DNA of 64,000 nucleotides from a virus. The translations under genes and the position numbers were made by a program. A model generated the notes under the pieces. It saw only the letters and a list, made by a program, of their open reading frames with translations. It did no database searches and was not told the DNA's origin. This document shows positions 18,171 through 43,284 of the stretch, piece by piece. Location of the stretch: positions 1-64,000 of IMG/VR virus record IMGVR_UViG_3300031215_000009. One strand, written 5' to 3'. Position 1 is the stretch's first letter. The number at the start of each line of letters is the position of its first letter.

Positions 18171-19190
18171 ATGAAATTCGAGACAACTCACTCGGGTAAA
18201 ATATTAACTTTAGTTGACGCTTCTGTTTTAGAAAGAAAGCAATTAAGTTTATCTTTAACCAAAAAATTAGAATATTACAATTTCTTACCTCCAGCAGTTA
18301 AGAAAAGATGGAATGGAATTGTATCTTATTTCCACAAGGATAGATTTGTCCCTGTTGGTTTGTGGCAAGAATTAAAGTACATTGCAGAAACTTTCAAATT
18401 CCCATTAGAAATAACAGGACTTGGAGAAGCAATATTCTACAAAGATGTAACAAGAGATGAATTTCAAGATTGGGTAGATGATAAGTTTTTCGGTGCCGTT
18501 AATTCTAAAGGTGATGATTTTATTCCAAGAAAATATCAAGTTGATACTGCATACGCAATCTTAACTAATAAAATATCAGTTAGTGAATTAACAACAGCTG
18601 CAGGGAAATCTTTGATTATCTTTATTTGTATTGTTTATTTTCAAGAAACTGGTTTAGGAAAGAAATTCTTAATGATTGTACCATCTATTGATTTAGTAAT
18701 ACAAGCTTATGAAGATTTTAATGAATATAATAGTTTTTTATTAGAAGATAATAGATTTCCATTGAATATCAAACAAATTCATGGGGGAGAAAAGAAAGAC
18801 TTTATTGCATCACAAAATATACATGTTAGTACGTTTCAATCACTTGCTAAATTTCAAAATCAATACTTCACTGTATTTGATACTGTTATTGTTGATGAGT
18901 GTTTACACCCAGACAGTTTAATCAAGATGGGAGATAATACAACAAAGAAAATATCAGATGTAGTAATAGGAGATGAAGTTTGGACTACTAATGATATTAC
19001 AGGAGATTTGGAAATTAATAAAGTAGATTATATTTATAAAAATCTTTCAAGTCACGAACACTTATATGAATTGGAATTAGAGGATGGTTCGATATTAGAA
19101 CTAACAGGAAATCACAAAGTAAAACTTTCTGATAAATCTTATAAGAGAGTTGATGAATTGACAGGAAGTGAAGATATAATAACTTATTAA
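18171..19190 (+). CDS. uvsW: UvsW helicase N-terminal part with N-intein
   Basis: 339 residues. Residues 1-243 are the N-extein: accessory domain, Q-type patch PRKYQVDTAYAIL, motif I TTAAGKS, and the start of motif II, VIVDE. At residue 244 the protein switches to a split-intein N-half of 96 residues: CLHPDSLIKMGD, GDEVW, then block B LTGNHKV, ending at a stop. UvsW is an SF2 helicase that unwinds R-loops and branched DNA. The missing His of DECH is supplied by the ORF at 19470 after trans-splicing. Confidence 0.85.
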   Translation: MKFETTHSGKILTLVDASVLERKQLSLSLTKKLEYYNFLPPAVKKRWNGIVSYFHKDRFVPVGLWQELKYIAETFKFPLEITGLGEAIFYKDVTRDEFQDWVDDKFFGAVNSKGDDFIPRKYQVDTAYAILTNKISVSELTTAAGKSLIIFICIVYFQETGLGKKFLMIVPSIDLVIQAYEDFNEYNSFLLEDNRFPLNIKQIHGGEKKDFIASQNIHVSTFQSLAKFQNQYFTVFDTVIVDECLHPDSLIKMGDNTTKKISDVVIGDEVWTTNDITGDLEINKVDYIYKNLSSHEHLYELELEDGSILELTGNHKVKLSDKSYKRVDELTGSEDIITY

Positions 19191-19586
19191 ATAACCTATA
19201 AAAAGTTTACAAGAAATTATAAATGAACAAACAGAAGCTATTCATCAAGATACTGGGATAGAAGAAGGACAACGCAAAGATGTTGATGAAAAAGTAGAAA
19301 AGAAGAATCAACAGAATATAGATAAGTTCAAAGGTTTAGAAGTTTACTTAAAAGAAAATGACTACAAATTCCATTTAATAGATGAAGACTATTTTAGTGT
19401 TCAAGATTATTCTTCTTTGGAAAACCAACCAAATAAAAAATTACTTAAAACCAGACTAAAAGCATTTATATGAAAATAAAGAAAATAACAAAAAAGAAAT
19501 ATAAAGGTGATGTTTATAATCTTAGAATAGATAGTGAAGATGGAAACAATCATAATTACTTTGCTAACGATATTAATGTATCGAAT
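18900..19586 (+). mobile_element. Split intein cassette in UvsW (DE|CH site)
   Basis: N-half 18900-19187 (96 residues, Cys1) and C-half 19470-19586 (39 residues, ending DINVSN). The following extein residue is Cys, so splicing restores VIVDECHRTKSN, the motif II box. The C-half has Ser instead of the usual His before the terminal Asn. The 280-base gap holds only an ORF lacking a start codon. Confidence 0.85.
19195..19473 (+). pseudogene. Start-less open frame between UvsW intein halves
   Basis: About 92 sense codons in a frame with no ATG, GTG or TTG near its beginning, charged and Gln/Glu/Lys-rich (GIEEGQRKDVDEKVEKKNQQ), whose TGA overlaps the ATG of the intein C-half. It occupies the place where a homing endonuclease gene is expected, so it may be the remnant of one. 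No domain recognised. Confidence 0.3.
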
Positions 19587-20273
19587 TGTCATAGAACTAA
19601 GTCAAACACTATTAGAGAATGTATTAGTAAGTGTGTAAATGTAGAAAGACGTTTCGGATTAACAGGAACAACTCCAAAACAAGGTACTTTAGATAGTTTA
19701 ACACTACAAGCATATCTTGGTCCCAAGGTAATAGAAGTTAAAGCAAAAGAATTACAAGACAAAGGAGATATTGCAGAAGTTGATATAGCAATTGTTGAAT
19801 TGATTTACCCTGAAGAAATTCAAAAACGATTTGATGATATTAAAAAGAGTATGACAGGTGAAGACAAAGGAAAACTTCTTAAAATAGAACAAGATTTTAT
19901 TATTAAGTACATTCCTAGAGTTGAATTAATTTCAAAAGTCATTTCTAAAGTTCAAAAAAACCAATTAGTGTTGTTTCACAGACAAGCTTATGGTAAACAA
20001 CTTAAAAAGTACTTAGAAGAAAATACAGATAAAGAAATATATTTTATTTATGGTGAAACTAAGAAAGATGATAGAGCTGAGATTAAAAGATTGATGGAAC
20101 ATGATGTTATTGAAAAGGAAATAGATGCTTTTCGATTTGATTCAGAAGGTAATAGTTATGAAATATCACACAATGAGTATATTAGATTAGTAAATGGTAA
20201 ATCTATAAAGGTGTCAAATTTAAGTGAAAATGATGATATTGATTTGAAAAGTATATCTAAATTTAAAGTTTGA
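19470..20273 (+). CDS. uvsW: UvsW helicase middle part with C-intein
   Basis: 267 residues. Residues 1-39 are the intein C-half (VYNLRIDSEDG, NYFANDINVSN). Extein resumes CHRTKSNTIRE, then motif III LTGTTPKQ and the second RecA lobe with VLFHRQAYGKQL and FIYGETKKDDRAEIKRLMEHDVI. After about residue 215 the similarity stops and a 50-residue Hint-like tail follows (DSEGNSYEISHNEY, NGKSIKV, SENDDIDL) before a stop. Helicase motifs V and VI are absent here and lie beyond the HNH gene at 21262-21604. Confidence 0.8.
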   Translation: MKIKKITKKKYKGDVYNLRIDSEDGNNHNYFANDINVSNCHRTKSNTIRECISKCVNVERRFGLTGTTPKQGTLDSLTLQAYLGPKVIEVKAKELQDKGDIAEVDIAIVELIYPEEIQKRFDDIKKSMTGEDKGKLLKIEQDFIIKYIPRVELISKVISKVQKNQLVLFHRQAYGKQLKKYLEENTDKEIYFIYGETKKDDRAEIKRLMEHDVIEKEIDAFRFDSEGNSYEISHNEYIRLVNGKSIKVSNLSENDDIDLKSISKFKV

Positions 20274-20318
20274 ATCACAACTGGAGTAAATATATAAAAT
20301 ATATAAAATAGATATATT

Positions 20319-21260
20319 ATGAAAAATGATTTACTTAAATGTTTCCAAGAAAAACATGGAACTCCAGATAATGTAAATAAATTAAATGAATATGTTGATT
20401 TCCTCCTGACATATAAGTTAAATGAAACTGAATATACTGAAAATCATCATATATTAGATAGGGCATCATTCCCAGAATTTGAAAAAGAAGAATGGAATAT
20501 TATAACATTAGACTATAAAGACCATATTAAAGTACATGAAATGTTGTTTGAAGATTATAATATTAGAAGATACCAAAGAACTCTTACTTTCAAAGGAGTG
20601 AAAAAAGATTATAAGTTACTTTCTAATGCAGCAAAGAAAGGATGGACTAAATTTAAAAACAACAAAGTAAAATATGATTTATTTTGTTTACGTAGAAGTG
20701 TAATAATGAAAACACTTTCGTCAGATGAACAATCAAGAAGGGGTAAATTATTTTGGGATAATTTATCAAGTGATGAATTAGAAAAATGGAAAATGAAATG
20801 TAATAAAGGTAGAACCAACGAATCAAAAATAAAACAAAAAGAATCAATTAATATTTATTATTCTAATCCTGATAATAGGGAAAAGAAATCTAAAGAAACA
20901 AAAGACTATTGGGATTCATTAAGTGAATCTAAAAGAAATGATTTTAGAAAAAACATGAAATCTATAAATTCTAATGAAGATAAAAGAAAAGATGCAAGTG
21001 TAAAAATAAAAAATAAATGGCAAGACCCTGTTTTTCAAGAAAAAATGTCAAATAGAAAAACTAAACCAAAAAACAAATATGAATTGATATTTGAAGATGG
21101 TAATAAAGAAATAATAATTGGGTTTTCTGAAATGATAGAAAAATATAACTTAAATGCTACACTAATTAGAAAATTCTTAAATACGAAAACCAAAGTAGAA
21201 TCTAAAAGTAAACGAGAACAAGCATTAAATACAATAGGATTAATAATAAACCAAATATAA
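20319..21260 (+). CDS. HNH homing endonuclease interrupting uvsW
   Basis: 313 residues. The N-terminal nuclease core shows ENHHILDRASFPEF followed by ITLDYKDHIKVHEML, the H-x-x-x-H spacing of phage HNH endonucleases. A long Lys/Ser-rich middle carries repeats of SKETKDYWDSLS type (NUMOD3-like), and the C-terminus has a NUMOD1/helix-turn-helix-like segment (GFSEMIEKYNLNATLIRKFL). It sits exactly between the second and third coding pieces of uvsW, as an intron- or gap-borne homing endonuclease would. Confidence 0.75.
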   Translation: MKNDLLKCFQEKHGTPDNVNKLNEYVDFLLTYKLNETEYTENHHILDRASFPEFEKEEWNIITLDYKDHIKVHEMLFEDYNIRRYQRTLTFKGVKKDYKLLSNAAKKGWTKFKNNKVKYDLFCLRRSVIMKTLSSDEQSRRGKLFWDNLSSDELEKWKMKCNKGRTNESKIKQKESINIYYSNPDNREKKSKETKDYWDSLSESKRNDFRKNMKSINSNEDKRKDASVKIKNKWQDPVFQEKMSNRKTKPKNKYELIFEDGNKEIIIGFSEMIEKYNLNATLIRKFLNTKTKVESKSKREQALNTIGLIINQI

Positions 21261-21261
21261 T

Positions 21262-21604
21262 ATGGCACAAATAACAAATTTAAAACACATAAAAAAGAAA
21301 GTAGAGGCTGCAAGAGTTCTTGTAGCCTCTTATTAGGTGCGGTACGTTATCGACAGGAATTAACATAAAAAATATCCATAATATTCACTTTACTGAATCG
21401 TTTAAATCAGATGTTATTGTAAGACAGTCTATTGGTAGAGGTTTAAGACAACATAAAGATAAAGATAAATTAAGAGTTTATGATTTTGTAGATTGTCTTA
21501 ATACTGGAAAAGATAACATGTTAATGAATCATTCAAGAGTTAGACGAACAATCTACAAAGAACAACAATTTGATTATATTATCAAGAAAGTACATTTAAT
21601 TTAA
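21262..21604 (+). pseudogene. uvsW: UvsW C-terminal piece (motifs V-VI) with frame disruption
   Basis: A 24-codon ORF at 21262-21336 ends RVLVASY then TAG. From 21341 another frame reads GTLSTGINIKNIH, FKSDVIVRQSIGRGLRQ (motif VI) and runs 87 codons to TAA at 21602-21604. T4 UvsW reads IVASYGVFSTGISVKN across this point, so the two frames are one domain split by 7 bases (21334-21340). There is no start codon for the second frame. Candidate explanations are real decay, recoding, RNA processing, or a sequence error. The hairpin GAGGCTGCAAGA / TCTTGTAGCCTC overlaps the first piece. Confidence 0.7.
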
Positions 21605-21608
21605 TAAT

Positions 21609-21646
21609 GGTCTCATAGAGTTAAATACTTTATGAGACCTTTTATT
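21609..21646 (+). terminator. Terminator after uvsW
   Basis: Stem GGTCTCATA / TATGAGACC followed by TTTTATTTTTT. Confidence 0.8.
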
Positions 21647-21668
21647 TTTTATAAAGTTTTTAATTACA

Positions 21669-21675
21669 TTAAATA
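21669..21675 (+). promoter_or_regulatory. Putative late promoter (TTAAATA)
   Basis: Box in CATTAAATAATT, 20 bases before the ATG at 21695. Confidence 0.45.
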
Positions 21676-21694
21676 ATTAAAAGAAATATAGTAA

Positions 21695-22042
21695 ATGAAG
21701 AGTTTAAATGAATTTTTAAAGGAAGAGGTATCTGATAAGTTAGAAGAAAGAACTGTTCAAGTTAAAAGAAAATATGGTATTCATGATTCTATCAAAGTTG
21801 GAGCAATTGCACCAGTTAGATTAAAAATATTAGGATTTATTGCAGAAAAAGGTCATTGTACTAAAGATGAATTAAAAGAATTTATAAATTCTAAAAATGA
21901 AGATTCAGGGACAAGAACTAATATGTCTTGGTTAAGAAAAAATGCAAAATATATTACAGAATTTGAAAAAGATGGTTGTAGTTGTTGTAAACTTTCTAAA
22001 CTTGGTAAAAGAGTTATAAACAAAACAAATATCAACGATTAA
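21695..22042 (+). CDS. Small protein with possible winged-helix fold
   Basis: 115 residues starting MKSLNEFLKEE. The centre (RLKILGFIAEKGHCTKDELKEFI, split here as RLKILGFIAEKG and CTKDELKEFI) has a helix-turn-helix/winged-helix look, and a C-terminal CSCCKLSKLGKRV follows. No family recognised. The N-terminus resembles that of the next protein (MKNLTGFINEA), a pattern seen in T4-type phages for proteins packaged into or processed in the prohead. Flanked by its own promoter and followed by another. Confidence 0.5.
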   Translation: MKSLNEFLKEEVSDKLEERTVQVKRKYGIHDSIKVGAIAPVRLKILGFIAEKGHCTKDELKEFINSKNEDSGTRTNMSWLRKNAKYITEFEKDGCSCCKLSKLGKRVINKTNIND

Positions 22043-22073
22043 TAGTTTAATTCGCAATTAAATCTAATTAGGA

Positions 22074-22080
22074 TTAAATA
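22074..22080 (+). promoter_or_regulatory. Putative late promoter (TTAAATA)
   Basis: Box in GGATTAAATATAG, 28 bases before the ATG at 22109. Confidence 0.45.
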
Positions 22081-22108
22081 TAGTAACTAAAAAATATAAA
22101 CATAAAAA

Positions 22109-22702: not shown

Positions 22703-22730
22703 GTATAATAAAACACAACAAAACACATTA

Positions 22731-22760
22731 AAAAAGGAATCTCAAAAGGATTCCTTTTTT
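22731..22760 (+). terminator. Rho-independent terminator
   Basis: Stem AAAAAGGAATC / GATTCCTTTTT with a seven-base loop and T-run. Confidence 0.85.
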
Positions 22761-22763
22761 TAT

Positions 22764-22791
22764 TGATTAAATATTAAAACTTAGAATTACT
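22764..22791 (+). promoter_or_regulatory. Promoter-leader repeat, copy A
   Basis: 28 bases containing GATTAAATATT and ACTTAGAATTACT, identical to 26487-26514. The ATG follows 4 bases later. It is a duplicated late promoter plus leader. Confidence 0.6.
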
Positions 22792-22795
22792 ATAC

Positions 22796-24073: not shown

Positions 24074-24087
24074 AAATAAAACAATAA

Positions 24088-25743: not shown

Positions 25744-25748
25744 TAGAT

Positions 25749-25982: not shown

Positions 25983-25996
25983 AAATATATAGCATT

Positions 25997-26473: not shown

Positions 26474-26484
26474 TGTTCTTTTTT
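26458..26484 (+). terminator. Terminator overlapping the gene end
   Basis: Stem AAAAGAACAC / GTGTTCTTTT with a five-base loop containing the stop codon, then T-run. Confidence 0.8.
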
Positions 26485-26486
26485 TA

Positions 26487-26514: not shown

Positions 26515-26517
26515 TTT

Positions 26518-27479: not shown

Positions 27480-27506
27480 TAATATACAAAACTAAATTAA
27501 TAAAAA

Positions 27507-27911
27507 ATGGCAGGACTACAACACTTATTCGATATTTATAGTAAACAAGGAAACGAGTTTATACAAGATATGTTTAGTAAACAATTAATTGTATCGGAAA
27601 AACCAGATGGTTGTCTAAAATATGATACTATTTTAGAAACCGAAGATGGATTAAAGACAATACAAGAAATATGCGAAACTCAATACAAAGGTAAAGTTAA
27701 ATCATATTGTATAGAAACTAATAGTATAGTTTGGGATTGTATAATAAATCATCTAATAAAGGAAGACCTTTCAAAAGTATGGTTTGAATTAGAATCTACC
27801 AATGGACAAATAATAACAGTAACTGGCAACCATAAAATATACTGTTCAGATTTAAAAATGTGGAAAAGAGTTGATGAATTAGATGGTACCGAATTGTTAT
27901 TGTTTAAATAA
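27507..27911 (+). CDS. Nucleic-acid ligase N-terminal piece with N-intein
   Basis: 134 residues. Only 35 are extein, ending IVSEKPDG, which contains the lysine and glycine of nucleotidyl-transfer motif I (KxDG). From Cys36 a 99-residue intein N-half follows: CLKYDTILETEDG, block B VTGNHKI, and WKRVDELDG, ending at a stop. The ligase is inactive as encoded because the adenylated lysine is separated from the rest of the active site. The partner ORF starts at 28270. Confidence 0.8.
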   Translation: MAGLQHLFDIYSKQGNEFIQDMFSKQLIVSEKPDGCLKYDTILETEDGLKTIQEICETQYKGKVKSYCIETNSIVWDCIINHLIKEDLSKVWFELESTNGQIITVTGNHKIYCSDLKMWKRVDELDGTELLLFK

Positions 27912-27985
27912 AGAAAGGGTATCATAGGAATTGTAGTTCCTCGCCCTTTCTTTAAAATAATTATTAACTAATGTATTTAACACAC
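27904..27985 (+). repeat. Structured leader repeat, copy 1 of 3
   Basis: Starts TTTAAATAAAG, outer stem AAAGAAAGGG / CCCTTTCTTT, inner hairpin AGGAA-TTGTAG-TTCCT, then AAAATAATTATTAACTAATG, closing at TATTTAACACAC. The ATG at 27971 opens only five codons (MYLTH). Shares layout and flanks with copies at 36064 and 43831. Confidence 0.75.
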
Positions 27986-28033
27986 TAAAAGAATGTCCAA
28001 TTTGCAAAAAGAAAATGAAATTTTTTGTAGGTA

Positions 28034-28189
28034 GACCGTGATGTAAATGCCGCTTGTAACATAAAATCTTTTACTTTAAAAAATATCTTGAGTACGGAAC
28101 ATACTCTTAAAAATCAAGGTAAGTTGCCAATATTAGTTGGAGCGTTAACCCTTGAAGCCCATCCCATCACCTCTGGCGTGGGTGGGTAG
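28034..28189 (+). pseudogene. TnpB (IS605/IS1341-type) C-terminal relic
   Basis: 51 codons reading DRDVNAACNIKSF, LKNILSTEHTLKNQG, KLPILVGALTLEAHPI and ending GVGG. DRDxNAAxN is the last RuvC motif of TnpB nucleases, and the LPxLVGALTxEAHP end recalls Bacteroidota TnpB C-termini. The frame is blocked by TAG just upstream; a nearby ECPICKKKMKFF in another frame (27993-28028) may be a zinc-knuckle remnant. Local GC rises well above the surrounding sequence, so the relic looks imported. It lies between the two ligase intein halves. Confidence 0.65.
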
Positions 28190-28269: not shown

Positions 28270-29493
28270 ATGGAAATAACGAAAATAAAATCTATAAAGA
28301 AATTAGACAATAAATTTACTTGTTATGACATAACAACGGAAAAAACCCATAATTTCTTTGCTAATGAAATATTAGTTCACAATTCGTCATTTTCAGCACA
28401 ACAAAGAGAAGATGGTGGTATGGATTTCTTTAAAAGAGATGATAGACAACCAATATCTAAATTAGACAGAACAATAATGTCTTTATATGAACCACCAATT
28501 GAATTCATCGAAAAACAAATAGGTGATAAAAAGATTCCATCAAATTTAAGATTTGGATTTGAATATTTTCAAAATACTAAACCAGTTGCAATATCTTATG
28601 ATGTATTACCTAAGAATGGACTTGTGTTAACACACATGAAAGAAATGAATGATAAAGGTAAAGTAACAAAATTTATTGATGATCCAAAAACTTTGAATAA
28701 ATGGGCGAAATACTTTAATGTAGAGAACCCTTTTATCATTTTTGATGGTAAGTTAAGTCAATTACAAAAAGAACAATTAGAAGAGTTCCTTAACACACCA
28801 TTCGAAGACTTAGTTGCTAAGTTTAAAACTTCATCGTTTACTAAATACATTGTTTCTATTTTAAATCCAAAATTAAAAAAAACAGCACTAAATAATACTC
28901 TTGATAAACCAATTGAAGGATTAGTGTTCAAATTTAATGATGGTGAGTATCTGGCAAAAGTAGTTGACCCAATGTTTACTCAAATGGCAAGAGATAAGGC
29001 AAATGCAAGACACGCTGAAAAAAAGAATAATAAACAAAGTTCTGATGAATTTGGATTAGTTCTTTATACTTTTATTAATTGGATAGAAGAAAATCAAATA
29101 TTTAAAGATTTCATTGCAGATGGTGATAATGAAGATGAAAAATATGTTGATTTAATGACAAGAATTGCAAAGCGTTTTATTGACGAAAATGCTATATTCT
29201 TAAAAGGATTGAATATCAAAAAACCAGATTTTGCTAAAGCACCAGAATTTGCATTGAATACTAAAATGATTAAAAATAAAGAAGTTGTAGATTTCATAAA
29301 TAAAAATAGAAACCAAGAAGAAATATTCAAAATTTTGTTATCTGGGTTTAGGAAACTTAGAAAACGAAAAACTAATATGATTGATGAAAATTTGATGAAA
29401 CAAATCAATTCAGTTGTAAATCAAATAAGAACAATTACAAAAAAAGTAAACGAAGAATTTCTTTCATTTTCAGATTGGAAGAAAACATTGTAA
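28270..29493 (+). CDS. Nucleic-acid ligase main part with C-intein
   Basis: 407 residues: intein C-half 1-38 (FTCYDITTEKTHNFFANE, ending VHN), then extein SSFSAQQREDGG. Ligase motifs downstream: a FGFEYFQN patch, EGLVFKFNDG (motif IV-like, about residue 218) and AKVVDP (motif V-like). The spliced product is about 404 residues. Covalent nucleotidyltransferase fold, ATP-dependent nucleic-acid ligase; DNA versus RNA substrate cannot be decided, though the neighbouring nucleotidyltransferase would suit RNA end repair. The C-terminal 100 residues are helical and basic. Confidence 0.75.
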   Translation: MEITKIKSIKKLDNKFTCYDITTEKTHNFFANEILVHNSSFSAQQREDGGMDFFKRDDRQPISKLDRTIMSLYEPPIEFIEKQIGDKKIPSNLRFGFEYFQNTKPVAISYDVLPKNGLVLTHMKEMNDKGKVTKFIDDPKTLNKWAKYFNVENPFIIFDGKLSQLQKEQLEEFLNTPFEDLVAKFKTSSFTKYIVSILNPKLKKTALNNTLDKPIEGLVFKFNDGEYLAKVVDPMFTQMARDKANARHAEKKNNKQSSDEFGLVLYTFINWIEENQIFKDFIADGDNEDEKYVDLMTRIAKRFIDENAIFLKGLNIKKPDFAKAPEFALNTKMIKNKEVVDFINKNRNQEEIFKILLSGFRKLRKRKTNMIDENLMKQINSVVNQIRTITKKVNEEFLSFSDWKKTL

Positions 29494-33695: not shown

Positions 33696-35204
33696 ATGAT
33701 ATTAGATATTGAACAAACAAAATACACCAATTCGGTAAAAATTTCTTATATTGATGCAAACAGGAATAGACAAATTCTTGACATTCCTAAAAGAGATTTT
33801 TGGAAATGGAAGTATAATGAAGGTGCAAATGCAGATTCTACTTTTAAATCTTGGGATAACAAAGGAGTTGTTAGGTGTTCATATAAAGATTCTGATAATA
33901 TAGACAAGAAAAGTATATGGGAATGGATCAATGCACAACCAGAATACAAAGACTTGTTATATCAATTCAATATACCAAAGATTCTTTTTTGTGATATTGA
34001 AACAGATATTCATGATGGATTTCCAGATGTAACTTTAGCAAAAGAAAAAATTACTTGTATTACCGTTTGTTATAAAGATGATAAAGGTGTTGTACAAGTA
34101 ATAATTTTAGGTGAAAAGGAAAACTTTGATTACGACAAACAAAAGAAAATGAATGATTTCATTGCTGATTATTTTTCAAAAATATCAGATTTGAAATTTG
34201 TATTGAAATATGTATTTATTCCAGATGAAAAGAAATTATTAGAATCATTTGTTAAGATTTGTTCTAAGTTTCACGTTTTAACTGGTTGGAACTTTATTAA
34301 TACCTTCCGTTCAAAGTGGTTTAATGACAGTGGATTTGATTGGCCTTTCTTATCAAAGAGAATGGAAAACTTAGGAGTTGATTACAGATCAATTTCACCA
34401 ACAAGAAACATTGCAAAGAAAAAAGATGTTGGTAATGTACCAAGTCACTTTGCAGTTGTTGATTATATGTATTACTTTGATGCATTTGATAGAAGTATTA
34501 AAGTAAAAGAATCTAAATCATTAGACTTTGTTTCTGGGGAAGTTCTTAAAGTTAAGAAATTAAAATATGGAAACTATCCAGTAATGGATGGTGATGTTCT
34601 TAAAGAAATGTATGATAAAGATTATTATACTTATTGTTTATATTGTGCCGTAGATACTATTTTAGTTCTATTAATACACGAAAAAAGACAACCATTCTCA
34701 GCAATCTTAGCACAAGGTAATGATTCCGGTAATCATATCGACAAAGCAGATTCTGCTGTAAATGTTACAGAAGGATTTATGTCTAAGGCTTACTATAAGG
34801 ACAACAAAGTAATGCCAATGATTGATATGACTAAAAGGAAAAAAGAATGGTATGAAGGTGCCTTTGTGAAGGCCCCTTTAGCAGGTTTACACGAATTAAC
34901 ATGTTGTTATGACTTTAGTTCACTATATCCATCAATATCAAGATTCTTAGAATTAGGATTTGAAAACTTTGATAGAAAATTAACAGATGATTTGAAAAAG
35001 TATGTAAACTATAAACCAGTTTCACTTAAATTAGAAAGACCAAAGAATGATGAGATTGTAAGTGTTACCGGTTGTGTATTCAAAAAAGGTGAATCAACAT
35101 TAAAAAAAGTTTATGATGAATTGTACGCTGCAAGGAAAAATAATCAATACCGAGCAAAATTATGTGCAAAAATCGCTCATGAATTAAAAGAAAAAAGTAA
35201 ATAA
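33696..35204 (+). CDS. 43: DNA polymerase gp43, N-terminal subunit (exonuclease + palm motif A)
   Basis: 502 residues. Exo I ILFCDIET (about 95), Exo II-like DSGFDWPFLSKRM (about 212), Exo III-like CAVDTILVLL (about 317), and polymerase motif A YDFSSLYPS (about 405) are present. The ORF stops after LYAARKNNQYRAK, before the fingers-helix motif B, and ends KEKSK. The remainder of the polymerase is in the ORFs at 36222 and 37173. No intein signature is seen at this break, so the parts probably assemble non-covalently, like the bipartite gp43A/gp43B of some T4-type phages. Confidence 0.85.
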   Translation: MILDIEQTKYTNSVKISYIDANRNRQILDIPKRDFWKWKYNEGANADSTFKSWDNKGVVRCSYKDSDNIDKKSIWEWINAQPEYKDLLYQFNIPKILFCDIETDIHDGFPDVTLAKEKITCITVCYKDDKGVVQVIILGEKENFDYDKQKKMNDFIADYFSKISDLKFVLKYVFIPDEKKLLESFVKICSKFHVLTGWNFINTFRSKWFNDSGFDWPFLSKRMENLGVDYRSISPTRNIAKKKDVGNVPSHFAVVDYMYYFDAFDRSIKVKESKSLDFVSGEVLKVKKLKYGNYPVMDGDVLKEMYDKDYYTYCLYCAVDTILVLLIHEKRQPFSAILAQGNDSGNHIDKADSAVNVTEGFMSKAYYKDNKVMPMIDMTKRKKEWYEGAFVKAPLAGLHELTCCYDFSSLYPSISRFLELGFENFDRKLTDDLKKYVNYKPVSLKLERPKNDEIVSVTGCVFKKGESTLKKVYDELYAARKNNQYRAKLCAKIAHELKEKSK

Positions 35205-35249
35205 ATGCATTTAATAATAAACAAGTAACAAATAGTAAATTTAAAATTA

Positions 35250-36038: not shown

Positions 36039-36063
36039 AATTTGGGAATATAAAAGTATTTGA

Positions 36064-36147
36064 TTAAATAAAGAAAGGAACTATAATAGGACTCGAATCC
36101 TAAGTTCCTTTCTTTAAAATAATTAAACTTAATGTATTTAACACACA
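36064..36147 (+). repeat. Structured leader repeat, copy 2 of 3
   Basis: Starts TTAAATAAAG; outer stem AAAGAAAGGAACT / AGTTCCTTTCTTT (13 pairs); inner hairpin TAGGA-CTCGAA-TCCTA; then AAAATAATTAAACTTAATG. Inner-stem bases covary with copy 3 (GGA/TCC versus GAA/TTC). Confidence 0.75.
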
Positions 36148-36221
36148 CCCAAATAATCCCAAATTCTGGAGGATTGTATCAAATAAGAAATAAAAATTTC
36201 AATAATTATAAATACATTTGA
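36132..36221 (+). pseudogene. Truncated GIY-YIG-like endonuclease start
   Basis: 29-codon ORF from the ATG of leader copy 2: MYLTHTQIIPNSG, then GLYQIRNKNFNNYKYI and TGA, abutting the gp43B ATG. SGGLYQIRN ... YKYI resembles the beginning of a GIY-YIG domain (GIYQIxN ... YIG). Probably the stub of a homing endonuclease that once filled the gp43A/gp43B gap. Confidence 0.4.
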
Positions 36222-36962: not shown

Positions 36963-37301
36963 CTTTGTAGTTTATATAGATTAAATTTAGAAAGTCTATA
37001 TAAAATATGAATTTAAAAGAACAAATAAAAGGATTTAGAAATAGAGAGATAAATTACATAGTGCGAATATGTGATATATTAGAATTTGATAGTTGCATAG
37101 TAACGGGAGAATCTATAATATATCCAAATACTAAAATTAGACAACACAAAGACGGTGAAATTTACTTAGAAAATGAAATACGAAATAGAAGAAATAGAAT
37201 ACATTGAGTGTATAGGAGAATTTGATGATGAATATGTTTATGATATAGAAGTTGATGATGATACCCATACATTTATTGCAAATGATATATTGGTTCATAA
37301 T
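36615..37301 (+). mobile_element. Split intein cassette in gp43 (DTD|S site)
   Basis: N-half 36615-36959 (115 residues, Ser1); C-half 37173-37301 (43 residues, ending ANDILVHN) followed by Ser. Splicing gives YIDTDSAYVTFEE, a complete motif C. The 213-base gap contains a 66-codon ORF. Confidence 0.85.
37007..37207 (+). CDS. Possible small protein between gp43 intein halves
   Basis: 66 codons, basic (IKGFRNREINYIV, ENEIRNRRNRIH), overlapping the start of the intein C-half ORF in another frame. No domain. It may be a remnant of an inserted endonuclease or a chance frame. Confidence 0.3.
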   Translation: MNLKEQIKGFRNREINYIVRICDILEFDSCIVTGESIIYPNTKIRQHKDGEIYLENEIRNRRNRIH

Positions 37302-38126
37302 TCTGCTTATGTGACTTTTGAAGAAGTTGCAAAGAAAATCAATTGGACAGGTTCAGCAACGGATTTAGTACTTACTATCAATAAACACAGACTAGAATCT
37401 TATTTAAAGAAAGTGTTTGAAAAGTATGCTGAATCTTATAATACTGAAAATTATTTAGATTTTGAATTAGAAACAATCAGTAAATCGGGTATTTGGGTAA
37501 AGAAAAAGAAATATACACAAGACATTGTGTGGGCTGATGGTAAGTTCTATGATAGTGGTAGTTACACAAAAACAACAGGATTGGAGATCATTAGATTAAC
37601 TACACCTCCATTTTGTAGACCAGAATTAGTTAAATTAGTTCAATGGATATTCGATAAAGGTAAACAATTTACACAAAGAGATATTACAATTGAATTGTTG
37701 AAATTAAAGAAAAGATTTGCAATTGTTGACATTGAAGATATTAGTATTACAACAGGAATAGGTGATTATGAAAAATATATTCTTAGTGACACTAATGGGT
37801 TAAAAGTTGCAAGTGGTTGTGGAACTCACATTAGAGGAGCAGGGATTTATAATATGTACCTTAATAACAATCCAGATTATGAAAATAAGTATGAAAGATT
37901 AAAAACAGGTGACAAAGTTAAGTGGTATTATGCAAAATCACACAAAGAAGAATTAAATGTTTTTAGTTACAAACGTGGTTCACACCCTAAAGAGTTTGCA
38001 CCAGAAATAGACATTGATTTGATGTTTGAAAAAACAGTGATAAACCCACTAAATAATATTCTTCAAGCAATGCCAGGGATTAATGCATTATCTGGTTCAT
38101 TGAAGATCAAAAAAAGATTATTTTAA
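37173..38126 (+). CDS. 43: DNA polymerase gp43, C-terminal piece with C-intein
   Basis: 317 residues. Residues 1-43 are the intein C-half (VYDIEVDDDTHTFIAND, ending VHN). Extein 44-317 resumes SAYVTFEE and carries the KKKYTQDI palm strand (KKKY motif) and a thumb domain ending ALSGSLKIKKRLF, like the clamp-binding C-terminal tail of T4-type polymerases. With gp43A (502) and the middle piece (131) the total is 907 residues, very near T4 gp43 (898). Confidence 0.85.
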   Translation: MKYEIEEIEYIECIGEFDDEYVYDIEVDDDTHTFIANDILVHNSAYVTFEEVAKKINWTGSATDLVLTINKHRLESYLKKVFEKYAESYNTENYLDFELETISKSGIWVKKKKYTQDIVWADGKFYDSGSYTKTTGLEIIRLTTPPFCRPELVKLVQWIFDKGKQFTQRDITIELLKLKKRFAIVDIEDISITTGIGDYEKYILSDTNGLKVASGCGTHIRGAGIYNMYLNNNPDYENKYERLKTGDKVKWYYAKSHKEELNVFSYKRGSHPKEFAPEIDIDLMFEKTVINPLNNILQAMPGINALSGSLKIKKRLF

Positions 38127-38143
38127 AAAAACAATTAATATAT

Positions 38144-38452
38144 ATGGCAAAAACAAGTAAAAAACATAGTTCCGTTGATGATATATTCAAAGAACTTAAC
38201 GAAGTTAATCCTTTTGGTAGTAGTAGTTTCGGTACCTCAGAGATTTATAAAAACAACAACTGGATTGATTCTGGTAATTGGATTCTTAATGCAGCATTAA
38301 GTGGTTCAATTAAAAAAGGGTTTCCAAGTACTAAACAAACATCATTAGTAGGAGAATCTGGTTGTTTACCGAAAGAAGAAGTTGTTCGATTATATATACT
38401 AAAGAGTATAGATAATTATGATAGAGAAATTATTAACGAGGAACATATCTAA
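38144..38452 (+). CDS. uvsX: UvsX recombinase N-terminal piece with very short N-intein
   Basis: 102 residues. Extein 1-73 ends TSLVGESG, the first half of a Walker A box. Residues 74-102 (CLPKEEVVRLYILKSID... ending NEEHI) are a 29-residue intein N-part containing block A only. Typical split inteins break about 90-110 residues in; this resembles the atypically split class with 25-30 residue N-inteins. Adjacent to gp43 and gp41 in a replication cluster. Confidence 0.85.
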   Translation: MAKTSKKHSSVDDIFKELNEVNPFGSSSFGTSEIYKNNNWIDSGNWILNAALSGSIKKGFPSTKQTSLVGESGCLPKEEVVRLYILKSIDNYDREIINEEHI

Positions 38453-38961
38453 CACTAAATCTTTATTTTGTGTTAAGGACGAAAACAAAAAATATGAAAA
38501 TAGAAATTATTAAAAAAGAGTTAACTCATTGTGGATATGACATCGACAAGTTAACTGATGGGGAATTAACTAAGTTATTCAATACTCATTGCGAAGAACA
38601 TTCTGAATTAGTTAAAGTACAAGATTTAATTGAAAATAAACTATCTAACTTTATAGTTATAGATACACCAGATGGATTTCAAGAAATTAGTACTATTTAT
38701 AATAAAAAGGAAAGACCTATATATGAAATAGTATTGACTAATGGATTTAAAGGACTATCTTCTAATGACCACTTATATGAAACACCAACTGGATGGGTTA
38801 AAGCCGAAGTACTTAAAAAATCTGATTTAGTATTGACTAAAGATGGAGTTTACGAGGTATCTACTATAAATAAAAAAGACAAAGAATTAGTATATGATTG
38901 GACAGTAGAACACGAAAACCATAGATACTGGTCTGGTGTTGGAGGTATTAGTTCCCATAAT
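38363..38961 (+). mobile_element. Atypically split intein in UvsX (Walker A G|SGKT site)
   Basis: N-part 38363-38449 (29 residues, Cys1); C-part 38494-38961 (156 residues) containing block B-like LSSNDHLYETPTGW and end WSGVGGISSHN, followed by Ser. Splicing gives GESGSGKTF. Only about 41 bases separate the ORFs and no endonuclease lies between. Confidence 0.85.
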
Positions 38962-39966
38962 AGCGGTAAAACATTCTTAACACTTAACGCTGTAAGGAAT
39001 GCACAATTAGCTGGTTACACACCAATTTATTACGATACAGAAGGTGCTGTTGACCCTGATAGTTGTTTGAATTTCGGTATTGATTTAAAAAACTTTAGAC
39101 ACGAACCAGTTTCGGAGATTGAAAAGTTGAAAACAATGTATGCTATTTTCATCAAGAACTTAACCGCATTGAAAATCAAAGGACAAGAAATTCCTAAATT
39201 TATTCTGATTCTTGATTCAATCGGAATGGTTGCATCATCAAAAGAAATAGAAGATGCAAGAACTGGAAATAGTGCCGCAGATATGACAAGAGCAAAACAA
39301 ATACGTTCGTTCTTTAGAATTATCACATCAGATTTGAATTCATTAGGAATTCCAATGATATTCACAAACCATACAATGGTAAACATTGGTGGTTATGGAG
39401 ACCCAGTTGTTCAAGGTGGTGGAGGTGGTGTTGTTTATTCCCCAAGTATCACATTATACTTATCAAAAGCAAAATTGAAAGATGATAAGAATGATGATAA
39501 AAGACAAACAGGTGTAATTGTAACAGCCAAGACCGGAAAGAATAGATTTGCACAACCTAAAACTATTAAGTTTCCTATATTCTTTGATAGACCATTCAAC
39601 AGATATATGGGTGTTCAAGATTATCTAAGTTGGGATAATGTAGGAATTGCAAAAGGAAATCTATTAACAAAATCTGAATATAATAAACTTAAAGGACAAG
39701 CAAAAGAAAAGATAAAAGTTTTTACACCAGACAACTCAGATGAAATAATGTATTTCGCACCAAAAGAAACAGCGAGAAAATATGTTGTTGAACATTTAGG
39801 CGAAGCAATCGACACGAGACAATTATTTTCTGAAAGAGTTATGAAACCATTAGAAGATAGATTTGATGCTGTAATTAGAAAAGATTTCGAATTTAGTTCA
39901 CAAGAAACCGATGAAGAAATTGAAGAAATACTTCACAATGATGATGAAGAACTAAACGAAGATTAA
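38494..39966 (+). CDS. uvsX: UvsX recombinase main part with long C-intein
   Basis: 490 residues from ATG 38494 (an in-frame GTG lies at 38470). Intein part 1-156, extein 157-490 starting SGKTFLTLNAV, then YYDTEGAVD, Walker B-like FILILDSIGMV, a TFTNH-like FTNHTMVNIGG loop for DNA contact and an acidic C-terminus (DEEIEEILHNDDEELNED). UvsX is the RecA-family strand-exchange protein acting with UvsY and gp32. The spliced product is about 407 residues, T4 UvsX 391. Confidence 0.85.
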   Translation: MKIEIIKKELTHCGYDIDKLTDGELTKLFNTHCEEHSELVKVQDLIENKLSNFIVIDTPDGFQEISTIYNKKERPIYEIVLTNGFKGLSSNDHLYETPTGWVKAEVLKKSDLVLTKDGVYEVSTINKKDKELVYDWTVEHENHRYWSGVGGISSHNSGKTFLTLNAVRNAQLAGYTPIYYDTEGAVDPDSCLNFGIDLKNFRHEPVSEIEKLKTMYAIFIKNLTALKIKGQEIPKFILILDSIGMVASSKEIEDARTGNSAADMTRAKQIRSFFRIITSDLNSLGIPMIFTNHTMVNIGGYGDPVVQGGGGGVVYSPSITLYLSKAKLKDDKNDDKRQTGVIVTAKTGKNRFAQPKTIKFPIFFDRPFNRYMGVQDYLSWDNVGIAKGNLLTKSEYNKLKGQAKEKIKVFTPDNSDEIMYFAPKETARKYVVEHLGEAIDTRQLFSERVMKPLEDRFDAVIRKDFEFSSQETDEEIEEILHNDDEELNED

Positions 39967-39982
39967 AATAAATTCTAAATTA

Positions 39983-40015
39983 AATCCCACATTTCTTTGA
40001 TTTGTGGGATTTTTT
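39983..40015 (+). terminator. Terminator after uvsX
   Basis: Stem AAATCCCACA / TGTGGGATTT with TTTTTT after it. Confidence 0.8.
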
Positions 40016-40037
40016 GTTATCTTACATTTTCTAAAAA

Positions 40038-40044
40038 TTAAATA
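40038..40044 (+). promoter_or_regulatory. Putative promoter (TTAAATA)
   Basis: Box in AAATTAAATAAAC, 22 bases before the ATG at 40067. TTTG (40001) and TACATTTT (about 40024) also resemble a Bacteroidota host promoter. Confidence 0.35.
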
Positions 40045-40066
40045 AACTATAAAAATAATTAACAAA

Positions 40067-40279
40067 ATGAACGATTTATTAAAATATATTAATAAAGAAG
40101 AAATTAATGAAGCAATGGTACAAATTGCAGGAAGTAAAAAACCATCAGGTGCAAAAGTTTTAGCAAAGATTACTGTTGAAATGTTAGTTGATAAAGGTTA
40201 TTTTACAAAACTACCTAAAGATTTTATACCGTATGCAAAAGAAGATATTGAAGAAGTTATTATAAATAGTACATTTTAA
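40067..40279 (+). CDS. Small hypothetical protein
   Basis: 70 residues, helical N-terminus (LLKYINKEEINEAM) and a Lys-rich centre (GSKKPSGAKVLAK). No domain recognised. Isolated between two terminators with its own promoter, between uvsX and gp41. Confidence 0.5.
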   Translation: MNDLLKYINKEEINEAMVQIAGSKKPSGAKVLAKITVEMLVDKGYFTKLPKDFIPYAKEDIEEVIINSTF

Positions 40280-40303
40280 TATTATAATCATAATTTAATT
40301 ACG

Positions 40304-40331
40304 AAGGACTAAAATTATTTAGTCCTTTTTT
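40304..40331 (+). terminator. Rho-independent terminator
   Basis: Stem AAGGACTAAA / TTTAGTCCTT and T-run, just before gp41. Confidence 0.8.
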
Positions 40332-40358
40332 GTGTTTAATACACAAAGAAAGATATAT

Positions 40359-41681
40359 ATGATAAACACTAATGAATTTGAGAAGATATTTTTACTGTAC
40401 GCATTGCAAACACCTGTCTATTTAGAACCAGTTGAACAAGGGTTCTTTTCCGTACCAGAAATAGATTTACTTGCTACCCTATCAAAAAGGTATTACAAGA
40501 AATATAAAATTGCACCTACAAAAGATAACTTGTGGATGCTTATTTCAACAGGAGAATTAGAACAACGATGTCCTAAAGTATTTTTTGATGAAATATTTAA
40601 GAAAAAAATAGAATCTTATGATATTGCTTGGGTAGAAGAAACAGCTCAATCGTGGATCAAATGGAAACATTTAGACTCATCTATCATTGATACAGTTGAA
40701 TATATCAATACTGTAAAGGTTACACCTGAAAATGTTAGTTCTATTGTTGATGATGTTAAAAATATGATTAATGGTAGAAACAATATTACTTTTGATGATG
40801 ATTTAGGTTCAGATTTCTTTGATACAAAATCTCACGTTCGTGACCCACAAGATTTATTAAGTTCTAATTATGATTTCTTAGACAAAAACCTTGGTGGGCA
40901 CTCTAAAGGAACATTAAATGTTTATGTTGCACCACCAAACACAGGAAAATCGTTATTCTTAGCACAAGATGCTGCTAATTATATGAAAGCAGGTAAAAAT
41001 GTATTGTTTATCTCATTAGAAATGGGAGGACAAAAGGTTCATAAAAGAATTGGTTCAGATATTTTCAATATTGCTATGAGTGATTATGATAACAAAGCAG
41101 ATGATACTGATTTCATGCATCGCAAAATTTCTGAATTCAAAGCACATAGTATAATTGAACCAGGTGCATTAACAGTAAAGAATTACGAAACAAGTAATGC
41201 AACTGCCGATGATATTGATAATTTTATTGGTAAAGTTCAAGATATTACAGGATTAGTTTATGATGTTGTAATAGTGGATTATATTAATATCATGAAAGAT
41301 ATTAGAAATCCTAATTCAGAATCAACATACATCAAGATTAAAAACATTTGTGAAGATTTAAGAGCAGTTGCTCAAAGAAGACATGTAGTTCTTTTAAGTG
41401 CAACACAAACTAACAGATGTTTAAGTTTAGATACTAAAGTACAAACTAAAGAGGGAGAAATGGAAATATCTAAAATAAAAGAAGGTGACTTTATTATGGG
41501 AACAGAAGATTGGGTTAAAGTTACTAAAGTTTACCCAATAGAAACACTACCTAAAGTATTGAAACTTAAAACCAAATCAGGAAAAGAAATTGTTTGTGGT
41601 CATAATCACTTATTCCCAATAGGAGATAAATTAGTAAAAGCATCCGACTTAGTAATTGGAGACAAATTAACAAGTAAATAG
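40359..41681 (+). CDS. 41: Replicative helicase gp41 N-terminal part with N-intein
   Basis: 440 residues from ATG 40359 (an in-frame GTG at 40332 lies in the terminator). Extein 1-353: N-terminal helical domain, Walker A PPNTGKSLFLAQ, LFISLEMGG, Walker B VVIVDYINIM and SATQTNR, where it breaks. IntN of 87 residues follows: CLSLDTKVQT, KEGDFIMG, block B CGHNHLF. This closely follows the gp41-1 class of split inteins found in phage gp41 genes. It unwinds DNA ahead of gp43 and recruits primase gp61. Confidence 0.9.
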   Translation: MINTNEFEKIFLLYALQTPVYLEPVEQGFFSVPEIDLLATLSKRYYKKYKIAPTKDNLWMLISTGELEQRCPKVFFDEIFKKKIESYDIAWVEETAQSWIKWKHLDSSIIDTVEYINTVKVTPENVSSIVDDVKNMINGRNNITFDDDLGSDFFDTKSHVRDPQDLLSSNYDFLDKNLGGHSKGTLNVYVAPPNTGKSLFLAQDAANYMKAGKNVLFISLEMGGQKVHKRIGSDIFNIAMSDYDNKADDTDFMHRKISEFKAHSIIEPGALTVKNYETSNATADDIDNFIGKVQDITGLVYDVVIVDYINIMKDIRNPNSESTYIKIKNICEDLRAVAQRRHVVLLSATQTNRCLSLDTKVQTKEGEMEISKIKEGDFIMGTEDWVKVTKVYPIETLPKVLKLKTKSGKEIVCGHNHLFPIGDKLVKASDLVIGDKLTSK

Positions 41682-43032
41682 GTGTTTGTGTTGCAGATAA
41701 TAGTTTTTGAGTAAATAGTATTGTATAAATGTCATATATTATGAAATCAAAAACTATTAAAAATAACATACAAAAAATCATAGAGCAAGACAATTATAAT
41801 AAATCAAATGTCGAAATTAATTTTCGTAGATTGTTAGTATTCTTTAGATTCTTTGAAAAAAATATTAGATTCGTCCAGATATATCAAACAACAAAGAAAC
41901 TTCAATTATTAAAAAAACTATATTATATGTTTCAATACAATATAGAAATAGAAACATCTACAAATTTAGATGAAAAATGGACAAATTTATTGTCTTTGTC
42001 ATCTAAAGATAGTTCATCTATTGAATATCATACTATCATATATGGACAAAAATTAGGTAAGGTTATACAAGAAAACAAATCAAAGAAAACTGCAATTACT
42101 GTTAATAATTTTATTAACAAGGTAGGTACTCTTTATAAAAATATCGAAGAAGCCAAAGTAGCATATAGAAATAGTAGAAATGGAACAAGTGATGTAAAGT
42201 TTAAAGAAAAATTTGGAACGAACTGGAAGGAACACAAACAAGAGTATTTAGACAGGAAACGACATAAACAATCAGTAGAGTATTTAGGGGAAGATGAATA
42301 CAATAAAAGAAAAGAATATCACAAATACTATAATACGAAAGACGGATATATCAAAAAGCATGGATTTGTAAAGGGATATGGTTTATGGAAAAGTAAAAAT
42401 AATAATATTAGAAAGTCTAATAAATTATTAACACACAACCGAGATAATAATAGTTTACCTGCACATATTCAAAGATATGGTATATTCAAAGGTAACCAAA
42501 TATATAAAAATCTTTGTTCAAAACAAAGACAAATATCAATAGTAAATGAATCGTATAAATATTTTGGTAAAAATAATGGTGCTATTAGTAAAATATCAAT
42601 GGTATTATATGATATGTTAATTCCATTTATTGATAATATAGAATGTGAGTTTAAAATAAATAGATATTATTTTGACTTTAAGATAGGTAAGACTATTATA
42701 GAGTTTAATGGTGACTATTGGCACTGCAATCCTATGATTTATGAACATGACCAATTAGTAAAATTTCCAAATAGAACAATACCCGCTAATACTAAATGGG
42801 AAGAAGATAAAAAGAAAATTAAAGTTGCTAAAGATAATGGATATGATGTTATTGTTATTTGGGAAAAAGATTTTAGAAATAATAAACAAAAAGTATTACA
42901 ACAATTAAAAAGAATATTATGTATTTAGATGAAATAATAGAAATAGAAACAATAGACAATATAGATACCGTAGATATTGAAGTATCAGGTAAAGATAGAT
43001 TATTTTATGCTAATAATATTTTAACTCACAAT
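41418..43032 (+). mobile_element. Split intein plus homing endonuclease cassette in gp41
   Basis: N-half 41418-41678 (87 residues), endonuclease ORF 41729-42928, C-half 42919-43032 (38 residues, ending NNILTHN) followed by Ser. Splicing gives QTNRSGFESSN. The endonuclease ORF and C-half ORF overlap by 10 bases. This is the complete fractured-gene arrangement. Confidence 0.9.
41729..42928 (+). CDS. Vsr-like (EDxHD-type) homing endonuclease
   Basis: 399 residues. The N-terminal 270 are basic and helical (DNA-binding), with EYLDRKRHKQSVEYL and YHKYYNTKDGYIKKHG. The C-terminal domain is a very-short-patch-repair-type nuclease: RYYFDFKIGKTIIEFNGDYW then HCNP, TKWEEDKKK and YDVIVIWEKDF, as in the endonuclease family associated with fractured phage genes. 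It lies between the two gp41 intein halves and should cleave intein-less gp41 alleles, spreading the insertion. Confidence 0.85.
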   Translation: MSYIMKSKTIKNNIQKIIEQDNYNKSNVEINFRRLLVFFRFFEKNIRFVQIYQTTKKLQLLKKLYYMFQYNIEIETSTNLDEKWTNLLSLSSKDSSSIEYHTIIYGQKLGKVIQENKSKKTAITVNNFINKVGTLYKNIEEAKVAYRNSRNGTSDVKFKEKFGTNWKEHKQEYLDRKRHKQSVEYLGEDEYNKRKEYHKYYNTKDGYIKKHGFVKGYGLWKSKNNNIRKSNKLLTHNRDNNSLPAHIQRYGIFKGNQIYKNLCSKQRQISIVNESYKYFGKNNGAISKISMVLYDMLIPFIDNIECEFKINRYYFDFKIGKTIIEFNGDYWHCNPMIYEHDQLVKFPNRTIPANTKWEEDKKKIKVAKDNGYDVIVIWEKDFRNNKQKVLQQLKRILCI

Positions 43033-43284
43033 AGTGGTTTTGAGAGTTCAAATATTAATATGGGAATGATTGCAGAATCAGCTGGTTTAGCAGCAACTTG
43101 TGATACTATCATGGCAATTATTCAAACACCTGATATGAACCTAGAAGGATTCTATTGGTTGAAACTATTAAAAGTTAGAGATGGTTCCGGTAAAGGAATA
43201 AAGTGTAAAATTGATATAGATTATGAATACATGAGATTGCACGAAACCAACACGGTATTGTTTGACGATGGTAGTGGTGAATAA
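42919..43284 (+). CDS. 41: Replicative helicase gp41 C-terminal part with C-intein
   Basis: 121 residues: intein C-half 1-38 (VDIEVSGKDRLFYANNILTH plus N), extein 39-121 starting SGFESSNINMGMI and including ESAGLAATCDTIMAI and LLKVRDGSGKG, the last DnaB-type motifs with the arginine of motif H4. Joined to the first part it gives a 436-residue helicase, near T4 gp41 (475). Confidence 0.85.
   Translation: MYLDEIIEIETIDNIDTVDIEVSGKDRLFYANNILTHNSGFESSNINMGMIAESAGLAATCDTIMAIIQTPDMNLEGFYWLKLLKVRDGSGKGIKCKIDIDYEYMRLHETNTVLFDDGSGE

What the first reader, a model, noticed from the sequence alone, without database searches (positions are those of the whole stretch)
18171..43284. Five core replication/recombination enzymes encoded as trans-spliced, fractured genes
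UvsW, a nucleic-acid ligase, DNA polymerase gp43, UvsX and helicase gp41 each exist as two separate ORFs, the first ending in an intein N-half and the second starting with the matching C-half. Four splice points lie within catalytic motifs (DE|CH, KPDG|S, DTD|S, G|SGKT) and gp41 is joined at QTNR|SGF. Single fractured genes are known from phage metagenomes (gp41-1, gp41-8, NrdJ-1); five in about 25 kb would make the whole replisome depend on parallel trans-splicing. The five inteins differ from each other, which would limit cross-splicing.
Basis: partly seen in the sequence, partly recalled or inferred. Interest (0 to 1): 0.92.

Follow-up and report, generated by a model that had tools for sequence, protein, structure and literature searches.

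The report
Split-intein phage genes, plus ribosome-hop candidate
Five DNA-replication genes of an uncultured phage are each cut in two by recently invading split inteins that should stitch the halves together after translation, and one of them (UvsW) has a second cut that looks like a new family of short ribosome-hop cassettes linked to a homing-endonuclease gene, similar in design to the famous T4 gene 60.

Summary
The five fractured genes are real. UvsW, a KxDG ligase-like protein, DNA polymerase, UvsX and gp41 each end and restart in matching intein halves. In close relatives the same proteins are continuous, and the extein pieces abut with a gap of exactly 0 nt at every predicted splice point. 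The inteins are mobile: against contig L007 their DNA is 96-99.7% identical while the surrounding exteins differ by 20-25%, and the switch falls on the intein borders.

This is a known kind (fractured genes; gp41-1, VidaL, Aes123 PolB). Multi-fractured phages are not unique: contig G009 has five, with a partly different gene set.

Polymerase is in three ORFs. UvsW has a second break that is no intein: an HNH gene, then a separate C-terminal subunit interrupted by a stop codon and a 7-nt gap. Twelve other distinct alleles share this layout, with gaps of 4, 6, 7 or 11 nt, a covarying hairpin abutting the last codon, and strong purifying selection beyond the stop. Uninterrupted versions lack the hairpin. 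I read it as a candidate translational-bypass cassette (p about 0.6). Nothing was tested at the bench.

The parts
18171..19190 (+). UvsW part 1: N-extein (to VDE) + IntN (18900-19187)
   Evidence: ResIII/DEAD and Hint/Intein_splicing Pfam hits; junction from 0-nt gap in relatives
19470..20273 (+). UvsW part 2: IntC (19470-19586) + middle extein (from CHRTKS) to about LME (20099), then about 55-aa C-terminal extension
   Evidence: extension shared by 11 alleles, resembles intein block-B region (hhalign 93.8%, E 1.8e-7)
20319..21260 (+). HNH homing-endonuclease-like ORF inside UvsW
   Evidence: phrog_12434 HNH E 3e-15; relatives in UvsW of many phages
21262..21336 (+). Start of UvsW C-terminal subunit: ATG ... 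VEAARVLVASY, then stop TAG (21334-21336)
   Evidence: sequence; same start and layout as the uninterrupted subunit of L109 and LIMEstone1
21303..21330 (+). 12-bp RNA hairpin abutting the TAT codon before the stop
   Evidence: -19.9 kcal/mol, z -6.2; covariation over 12 alleles
21334..21340 (+). 7-nt gap TAGGTGC between VASY and GTLSTG (candidate bypassed gap)
   Evidence: 13 alleles with 4/6/7/11-nt gaps, empty alleles 0
21341..21604 (+). UvsW C-terminal part (GTLSTGINI..., helicase motif VI)
   Evidence: 85% aa to relative L014, pN/pS 0.19
27507..27911 (+). Ligase-like N-extein (to KPDG) + IntN (from 27612)
   Evidence: Pfam Intein_splicing; NrdJ-1 match
28270..29493 (+). Ligase-like IntC (28270-28383) + C-extein
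33696..35204 (+). DNA polymerase subunit A (exonuclease and first part), intein-less break
   Evidence: phrog_2062/262; same split in L008-L012
36222..36962 (+). DNA polymerase B, first piece (to DTD) + IntN (from 36615)
37173..38126 (+). Pol IntC (37173-37301) + C-extein (SAYVTFEE...)
38144..38452 (+). UvsX N-extein (to GESG) + short IntN (29 aa, from 38363)
   Evidence: phrog_97
38470..39966 (+). UvsX long IntC (ATG 38494, to 38961) + C-extein (SGKT...)
   Evidence: RecA/phrog_97; VidaL E 6e-8
40332..41681 (+). gp41 N-extein (to QTNR) + IntN (from 41418)
   Evidence: DnaB_C; gp41-1 E 9e-21
41729..42928 (+). Free-standing endonuclease-like ORF between gp41 halves
   Evidence: phrog_22677 E 1.5e-19, phrog_13076 endonuclease; remnant in L007 with 69 aa 98.6% identical
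42919..43284 (+). gp41 IntC (42919-43032) + C-extein (SGFESS...)

Best explanation
Five separate mobile split inteins have homed into five replication/recombination genes of a T4-related phage. Shown here: each gene is interrupted between two ORFs; each pair of halves carries the full set of splicing residues; joining the exteins at the predicted points gives the protein layout that close relatives encode in one piece; the intein DNA moved between phages recently and independently of the exteins. Inferred: the halves associate after translation and trans-splice, restoring the enzyme. An endonuclease made from the spacer between the halves cuts empty alleles during co-infection, so the insert is copied in. 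Endonucleases then decay: intact at gp41 here, a remnant at UvsX and gp41 in L007, gone at UvsX, pol and UvsW here. Once fractured, a gene cannot revert except by exact loss, so insertions pile up. UvsW has a further, non-intein break: an HNH gene splits off a C-terminal subunit. In this phage a stop plus 7-nt gap interrupts that subunit, and I think ribosomes hop the gap, helped by the hairpin just before it (inferred, p about 0.6; not part of the confidence given here).
For: Gap 0 nt at all five junctions in relatives. Homing: nucleotide differences to L007 are 1/375 in the gp41 intein against 261/1299 in its exteins; 4/555 against 306/1206 (UvsX); 19/474 against 264/1212 (pol). The switch sits on the intein borders. 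Pol intein halves under purifying selection against L022 (pN/pS 0.23 for IntN, 0.07 for IntC). gp41 empty alleles have Ala at +1 where fractured alleles have the needed Ser. Endonuclease-sized ORFs between halves in most relatives; cis forms at the same pol site in L028, L043, L044. Nearest solved sequences are inteins, several of them naturally split. UvsW second break.
Against: No splicing, proteomics or expression data. UvsW IntC ends SN, not HN, though all fractured UvsW relatives do too. The record is one metagenomic assembly of 81 kb. Spacers of UvsW, pol, UvsX and ligase hold no intact endonuclease here.
Confidence: 0.9

Rival explanations
1. The halves do not splice; the enzymes work as non-covalent two-subunit proteins (as with split NrdA of Aeh1 or 43A/43B), with intein remnants as dead tails.
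For: Pol has an older intein-less split into two ORFs, as in relatives; 43A/43B of phage 25 co-purify and polymerise (PMC2988022).
Against: All splicing residues kept; four breaks lie inside catalytic motifs (DECH box, KxDG, DTD, Walker A), where an intein-tailed break should kill activity; pol intein halves under purifying selection.
Confidence: 0.06
2. UvsW second break is simply a dead gene or an assembly error.
For: Stop codon and frame change within the gene; single assembly for the window.
Against: 13 distinct alleles share the layout, stop position and hairpin; pN/pS beyond the stop 0.14-0.22 between carrier alleles; 0 of 20000 shuffles reach the arm pairing.
Confidence: 0.1
3. The UvsW C-terminal part is made by a simple frameshift, stop readthrough, or re-initiation at the stop rather than by bypassing.
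For: ATT or GTG overlaps the stop in many alleles (e.g. ATTGA, GTGA), which could allow coupled re-initiation; 4- and 7-nt gaps fit a +1 shift. L122-L124 look like a plain 1-nt shift variant.
Against: Gap lengths 4, 6, 7, 11 cover all three frames; L101 has two stops in a row (TAGTAA); L088 and L091 have no start codon at the stop; uninterrupted subunits (L109, LIMEstone1, D506) start at the upstream MKP.. codon.
Confidence: 0.25
4. UvsW second break is a self-splicing intron, as the LIMEstone1 authors suggested for the homologous I-LimI.
For: An HNH gene sits within a conserved gene; PMC3296691 lists I-LimI as intron-encoded.
Against: No Rfam group I/II match in the window, L070 or nine other carriers; VASY lies on the 3' side of the insert, so excision would have to remove only 4-11 nt there; little non-coding room.
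Confidence: 0.05

Closest known systems
Fractured genes with split inteins and a Vsr-like endonuclease between halves (Dassa et al. 2009; gp41-1, gp41-8, NrdJ-1; full text not held, known from citations and memory)
   Same: Two-ORF host gene, IntN/IntC at the break, endonuclease ORF between (gp41)
   Different: Five in one 25-kb stretch, most spacers now without endonuclease; direct recent-homing evidence
Tenacibaculum phage PTm1 / Pseudomonas phage MIJ3 split polymerase
   Same: Split intein in the polymerase; in PTm1 at the same DTD|S site, with pol in three ORFs and a VSR endonuclease between intein halves; MIJ3 has an HNH ORF (PMC6892783)
   Different: Reported for the polymerase only; here also UvsW, ligase, UvsX, gp41
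Aes123 PolB1 cysteine-less split intein (PMC11923092)
   Same: T4-like phage PolB host gene; Ser1 and no nucleophilic Cys; splicing shown for Aes123
   Different: About 32% identity over the piece
VidaL atypically split intein (6vgv)
   Same: Short IntN, long IntC (VidaL IntN size from memory); sequence match E 6e-8
   Different: IntN 29 aa here; placed at the Walker A motif of UvsX
T4 gene 60 bypass with mobA (PMC5009743, PMC11194080; mobA named from memory and PMC2988022)
   Same: Homing-endonuclease gene splits the host gene; stop right after take-off codon; stem-loop upstream; frame-indifferent gap
   Different: UvsW not topoisomerase; gap 4-11 nt not 50; take-off/landing codons match only in L106 and L115; leader only about 18-26 aa
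LIMEstone1 UvsW / I-LimI / UvsW C-part (cultured, PMC3296691)
   Same: Same N-part extension, HNH and separate C-subunit
   Different: C-subunit uninterrupted, no stop or gap

Membership tests
Fractured genes / naturally split inteins | Host protein in two ORFs, first ends in IntN, second starts with IntC | tested here: met
Fractured genes / naturally split inteins | Extein junction equals uninterrupted homologue | tested here: met
   gap 0 at all five
Fractured genes / naturally split inteins | Catalytic residues of blocks A, B, G and +1 | tested here: met
   sequence of all five pairs; UvsW has SN in place of HN
Fractured genes / naturally split inteins | Endonuclease ORF between halves | tested here: inconclusive
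   intact only at gp41; remnant at UvsX in L007; absent at UvsW and pol; weak TnpB-like scrap at ligase
Fractured genes / naturally split inteins | Trans-splicing activity | not testable with these tools
   needs expression
Atypically split inteins (VidaL type) | Short IntN, long IntC carrying block B | tested here: met
   UvsX IntN 29 aa; VidaL match
Gene 60-type bypass cassette | Endonuclease gene splits host gene upstream of gap | tested here: met
Gene 60-type bypass cassette | Stop codon directly after take-off codon | tested here: met
   all 13 gapped alleles; but L102/L116 have a gap with no in-frame stop
Gene 60-type bypass cassette | 5' stem-loop near take-off site | tested here: met
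[quoted passage not shown]
   window TAT vs TGC; perfect match (TCG/TCG) only in L106 and L115. So: works like gene 60, not filed as a member
Gene 60-type bypass cassette | Fused protein product | not testable with these tools
   needs reporter or mass spectrometry
Group I/II intron | Ribozyme core | tested here: not met
   no Rfam match

The most novel reading that the evidence does not exclude
UvsW genes of many phages, this one included, carry a family of homing-endonuclease cassettes whose downstream subunit is read through a stop-containing gap of 4-11 nt by hairpin-driven ribosome bypassing, a short-range natural counterpart of T4 gene 60. In this phage UvsW would need both protein trans-splicing and ribosome bypassing to be made.
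Probability: 0.58. Interest if true: 0.88.

Novelty: new variant of a known kind. Interest (0 to 1): 0.7.

Why it matters
The fractured genes, with empty, cis, endonuclease-bearing and endonuclease-less alleles in relatives, give a rare view of the whole homing cycle of split inteins, and five diverged split-intein pairs for protein chemistry. The UvsW element matters more. A 2016 review says counterparts of gene 60 bypassing have long been presumed to exist, perhaps over shorter distances (PMC5009743). Here are 13 natural gap variants plus uninterrupted controls, which make that question directly testable with small reporters.

Tried and rejected
Group I/II introns: no Rfam match in the window, L070 or nine other carriers. 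UvsW second break as another split intein: the 55-aa extension does resemble an intein block-B segment, but there is no block A and no IntC before the C-part, so rejected. +1 frameshift as sole mechanism: gap lengths cover all frames. Ligase identity: no Pfam, PHROG or PDB match at a useful E-value; it rests on the KPDG motif and an EGLVFK segment only. Ligase-intein relatives in IMG/VR: none found. HNH relatives in GTDB genomes: none. MAFFT alignment of the hairpin misplaced loops, so pairing was counted by register in a script. Dassa 2009 full text not held.
Full report
Setting. The window is bases 1-64000 of an 81,441-base virus record that encodes a T4-like replication module: SSB, primase, UvsW, DNA polymerase, UvsX, gp41 and gp47/gp46 homologues, and clamp and clamp-loader genes by sequence inspection.

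The five fractured genes. I cut each gene at the point predicted by the intein ends and used the extein pieces as queries. Close relatives (about 70-92% aa) are L008-L012 for pol and UvsX, L008 and L010-L012 for gp41, L013-L018 for UvsW, and L008, L011 and L014-L018 for ligase; some of these loci come from the same contig. In all of them the two pieces abut with a gap of 0 nt (sequences). This confirms each junction to the residue without assuming that splicing works. The nearest solved sequences are split or mini-inteins: gp41-1, a polymerase intein (9hth), NrdJ-1, DnaB and VidaL. The UvsX pair is atypically split: 29 aa in IntN, about 160 in IntC.

They are mobile and recent. L007 shares three of the five insertions (pol, UvsX, gp41). 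Along each gene the DNA identity jumps at the intein borders. gp41: 1 difference in 375 intein nt, 261 in 1299 extein nt. UvsX: 4/555 against 306/1206. Pol: 19/474 against 264/1212. L022 has only pol fractured. The spacer between halves shows the decay series. A full 399-aa endonuclease-like ORF sits in gp41 here; an internally deleted copy, 98.6% identical over the 69 aa left, sits in L007; an endonuclease scrap remains at UvsX in L007 and nothing here. At the pol site other phages have a full endonuclease-sized ORF or a contiguous cis intein. In gp41 the empty alleles carry Ala at +1, whereas fractured alleles carry Ser, the nucleophile splicing needs.

How unusual. The pol and UvsW split inteins are common in IMG/VR phages and the pol case is present in cultured PTm1 and MIJ3 (PMC6892783). 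G009 has intein breaks in a ligase-like gene, ribonucleotide reductase, pol, UvsX at a different site, and gp46 (N-half of gp46 not traced), within about 31 kb. LR756500 has breaks in two topoisomerase-like genes, clamp loader, pol and ribonucleotide reductase (these gene names are my reading of the sequences). So the finding is a rich example of a known kind, not a unique one. Pol has an additional, intein-less break shared by relatives, like 43A/43B of Aeromonas phages (PMC2988022).

The second UvsW break. UvsW does not end with its intein-borne second ORF. After about LME the ORF runs into a 55-aa extension and stops. An HNH ORF follows, then an ATG starts a short frame ending VEAARVLVASY-TAG. 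Four nt after that stop, in another frame, come GTLSTGINI and the rest of the helicase. Searching with the HNH proteins gave 60 loci. Thirteen distinct alleles (window included) have a stop immediately after VASY (VASS in two) and a gap of TGAC, TAGTGC, TAGTAA, TAGGTGC, TGAGNNC or an 11-nt sequence before GT(F/L)(S/A)TG; empty alleles have 0. Gap lengths mod 3 take all values.

In every gapped allele a hairpin of 10 or more bp abuts the codon before the stop. Folding z-scores are -4.2 to -7.0 in the eight alleles tested, against -0.9 to -2.9 in four empty alleles. Across 12 alleles 106 of 108 register positions pair; shuffling arms gives a mean of 91 and never reaches 106 in 20,000 trials; four positions show three or more pair types. 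Because the 3' arm encodes VASY, its silent codon changes are matched in the 5' arm. Related sequences make the shuffle only a guide, but double changes at several positions are hard to get otherwise. Beyond the stop, pN/pS is 0.14-0.22 between carrier alleles with near-saturated pS, so the segment is most likely translated and selected.

Natural controls. L109/L111 and cultured LIMEstone1 and Vibrio D506 have the same extension and a C-subunit beginning MKP.., uninterrupted (107-135 aa); L109 and LIMEstone1 show no comparable hairpin. D506 has no HNH gene there. The two-polypeptide UvsW is therefore a stable state, and the gapped alleles should yield the same protein by some recoding. A length-indifferent hop fits all 13; frameshift, readthrough and re-initiation each fail on at least two alleles. 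T4 gene 60 offers the model: an endonuclease split gene 39, a stop follows the take-off codon, and a 5' stem-loop pulls the mRNA (PMC5009743, PMC11194080). Weak points: take-off and landing codons match only in the two 11-nt alleles; the leader peptide is short; L102/L116 have hairpin and gap but no in-frame stop, and L122-L124 look like a plain 1-nt shift. No held paper describes this element as bypassed.

Verdict. Observation confirmed; interpretation partly supported; the UvsW cassette is the more novel result. Known-kind split inteins 0.9; UvsW bypass about 0.58.

Noticed in passing
window 20100-21604; L056, L070, L072, L088, L089, L091, L095, L098, L101, L106, L110, L115: UvsW HNH cassette with hairpin, stop and 4-11-nt gap (candidate translational bypass); described in the report.
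   Followed up: yes
L102-L105, L116 and L122-L124: Variants of the same UvsW cassette: L102/L116 have hairpin and 7-nt gap without an in-frame stop; L122-L124 have a 1-nt insertion at GTF|STG.
   Followed up: partly
L079/L080 (contig G009): Another phage contig with five intein-broken genes: ligase-like, ribonucleotide reductase, pol, UvsX at a different site, gp46.
   Followed up: partly
window 27988-28189: Frame-broken scrap resembling a TnpB/Cas12f zinc finger and DRDVNAA motif between the ligase intein halves (Pfam TNB E 0.007 on a joined piece).
   Followed up: no
window 27911-27990, 36067-36150, 43819-43981: Similar intergenic repeat with a terminator-like hairpin (AAAGAAAGG...CCTTTCTTT) followed by a shared AT-rich stretch; also in L007.
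   Followed up: no
L063 UvsW insert (4771 bp): Extra genes, including a 693-aa ORF, sit between the UvsW intein halves.
   Followed up: no
L081, L082 (LR756500): Intein breaks in two topoisomerase-like genes and a clamp-loader gene, with endonuclease-like ORFs between halves.
   Followed up: no
L149 (Vibrio phage D506) 1777-3539: Cultured phage with two-part UvsW, keeping the 55-aa extension but with no HNH gene: the extension may have a role in the split protein.
   Followed up: partly
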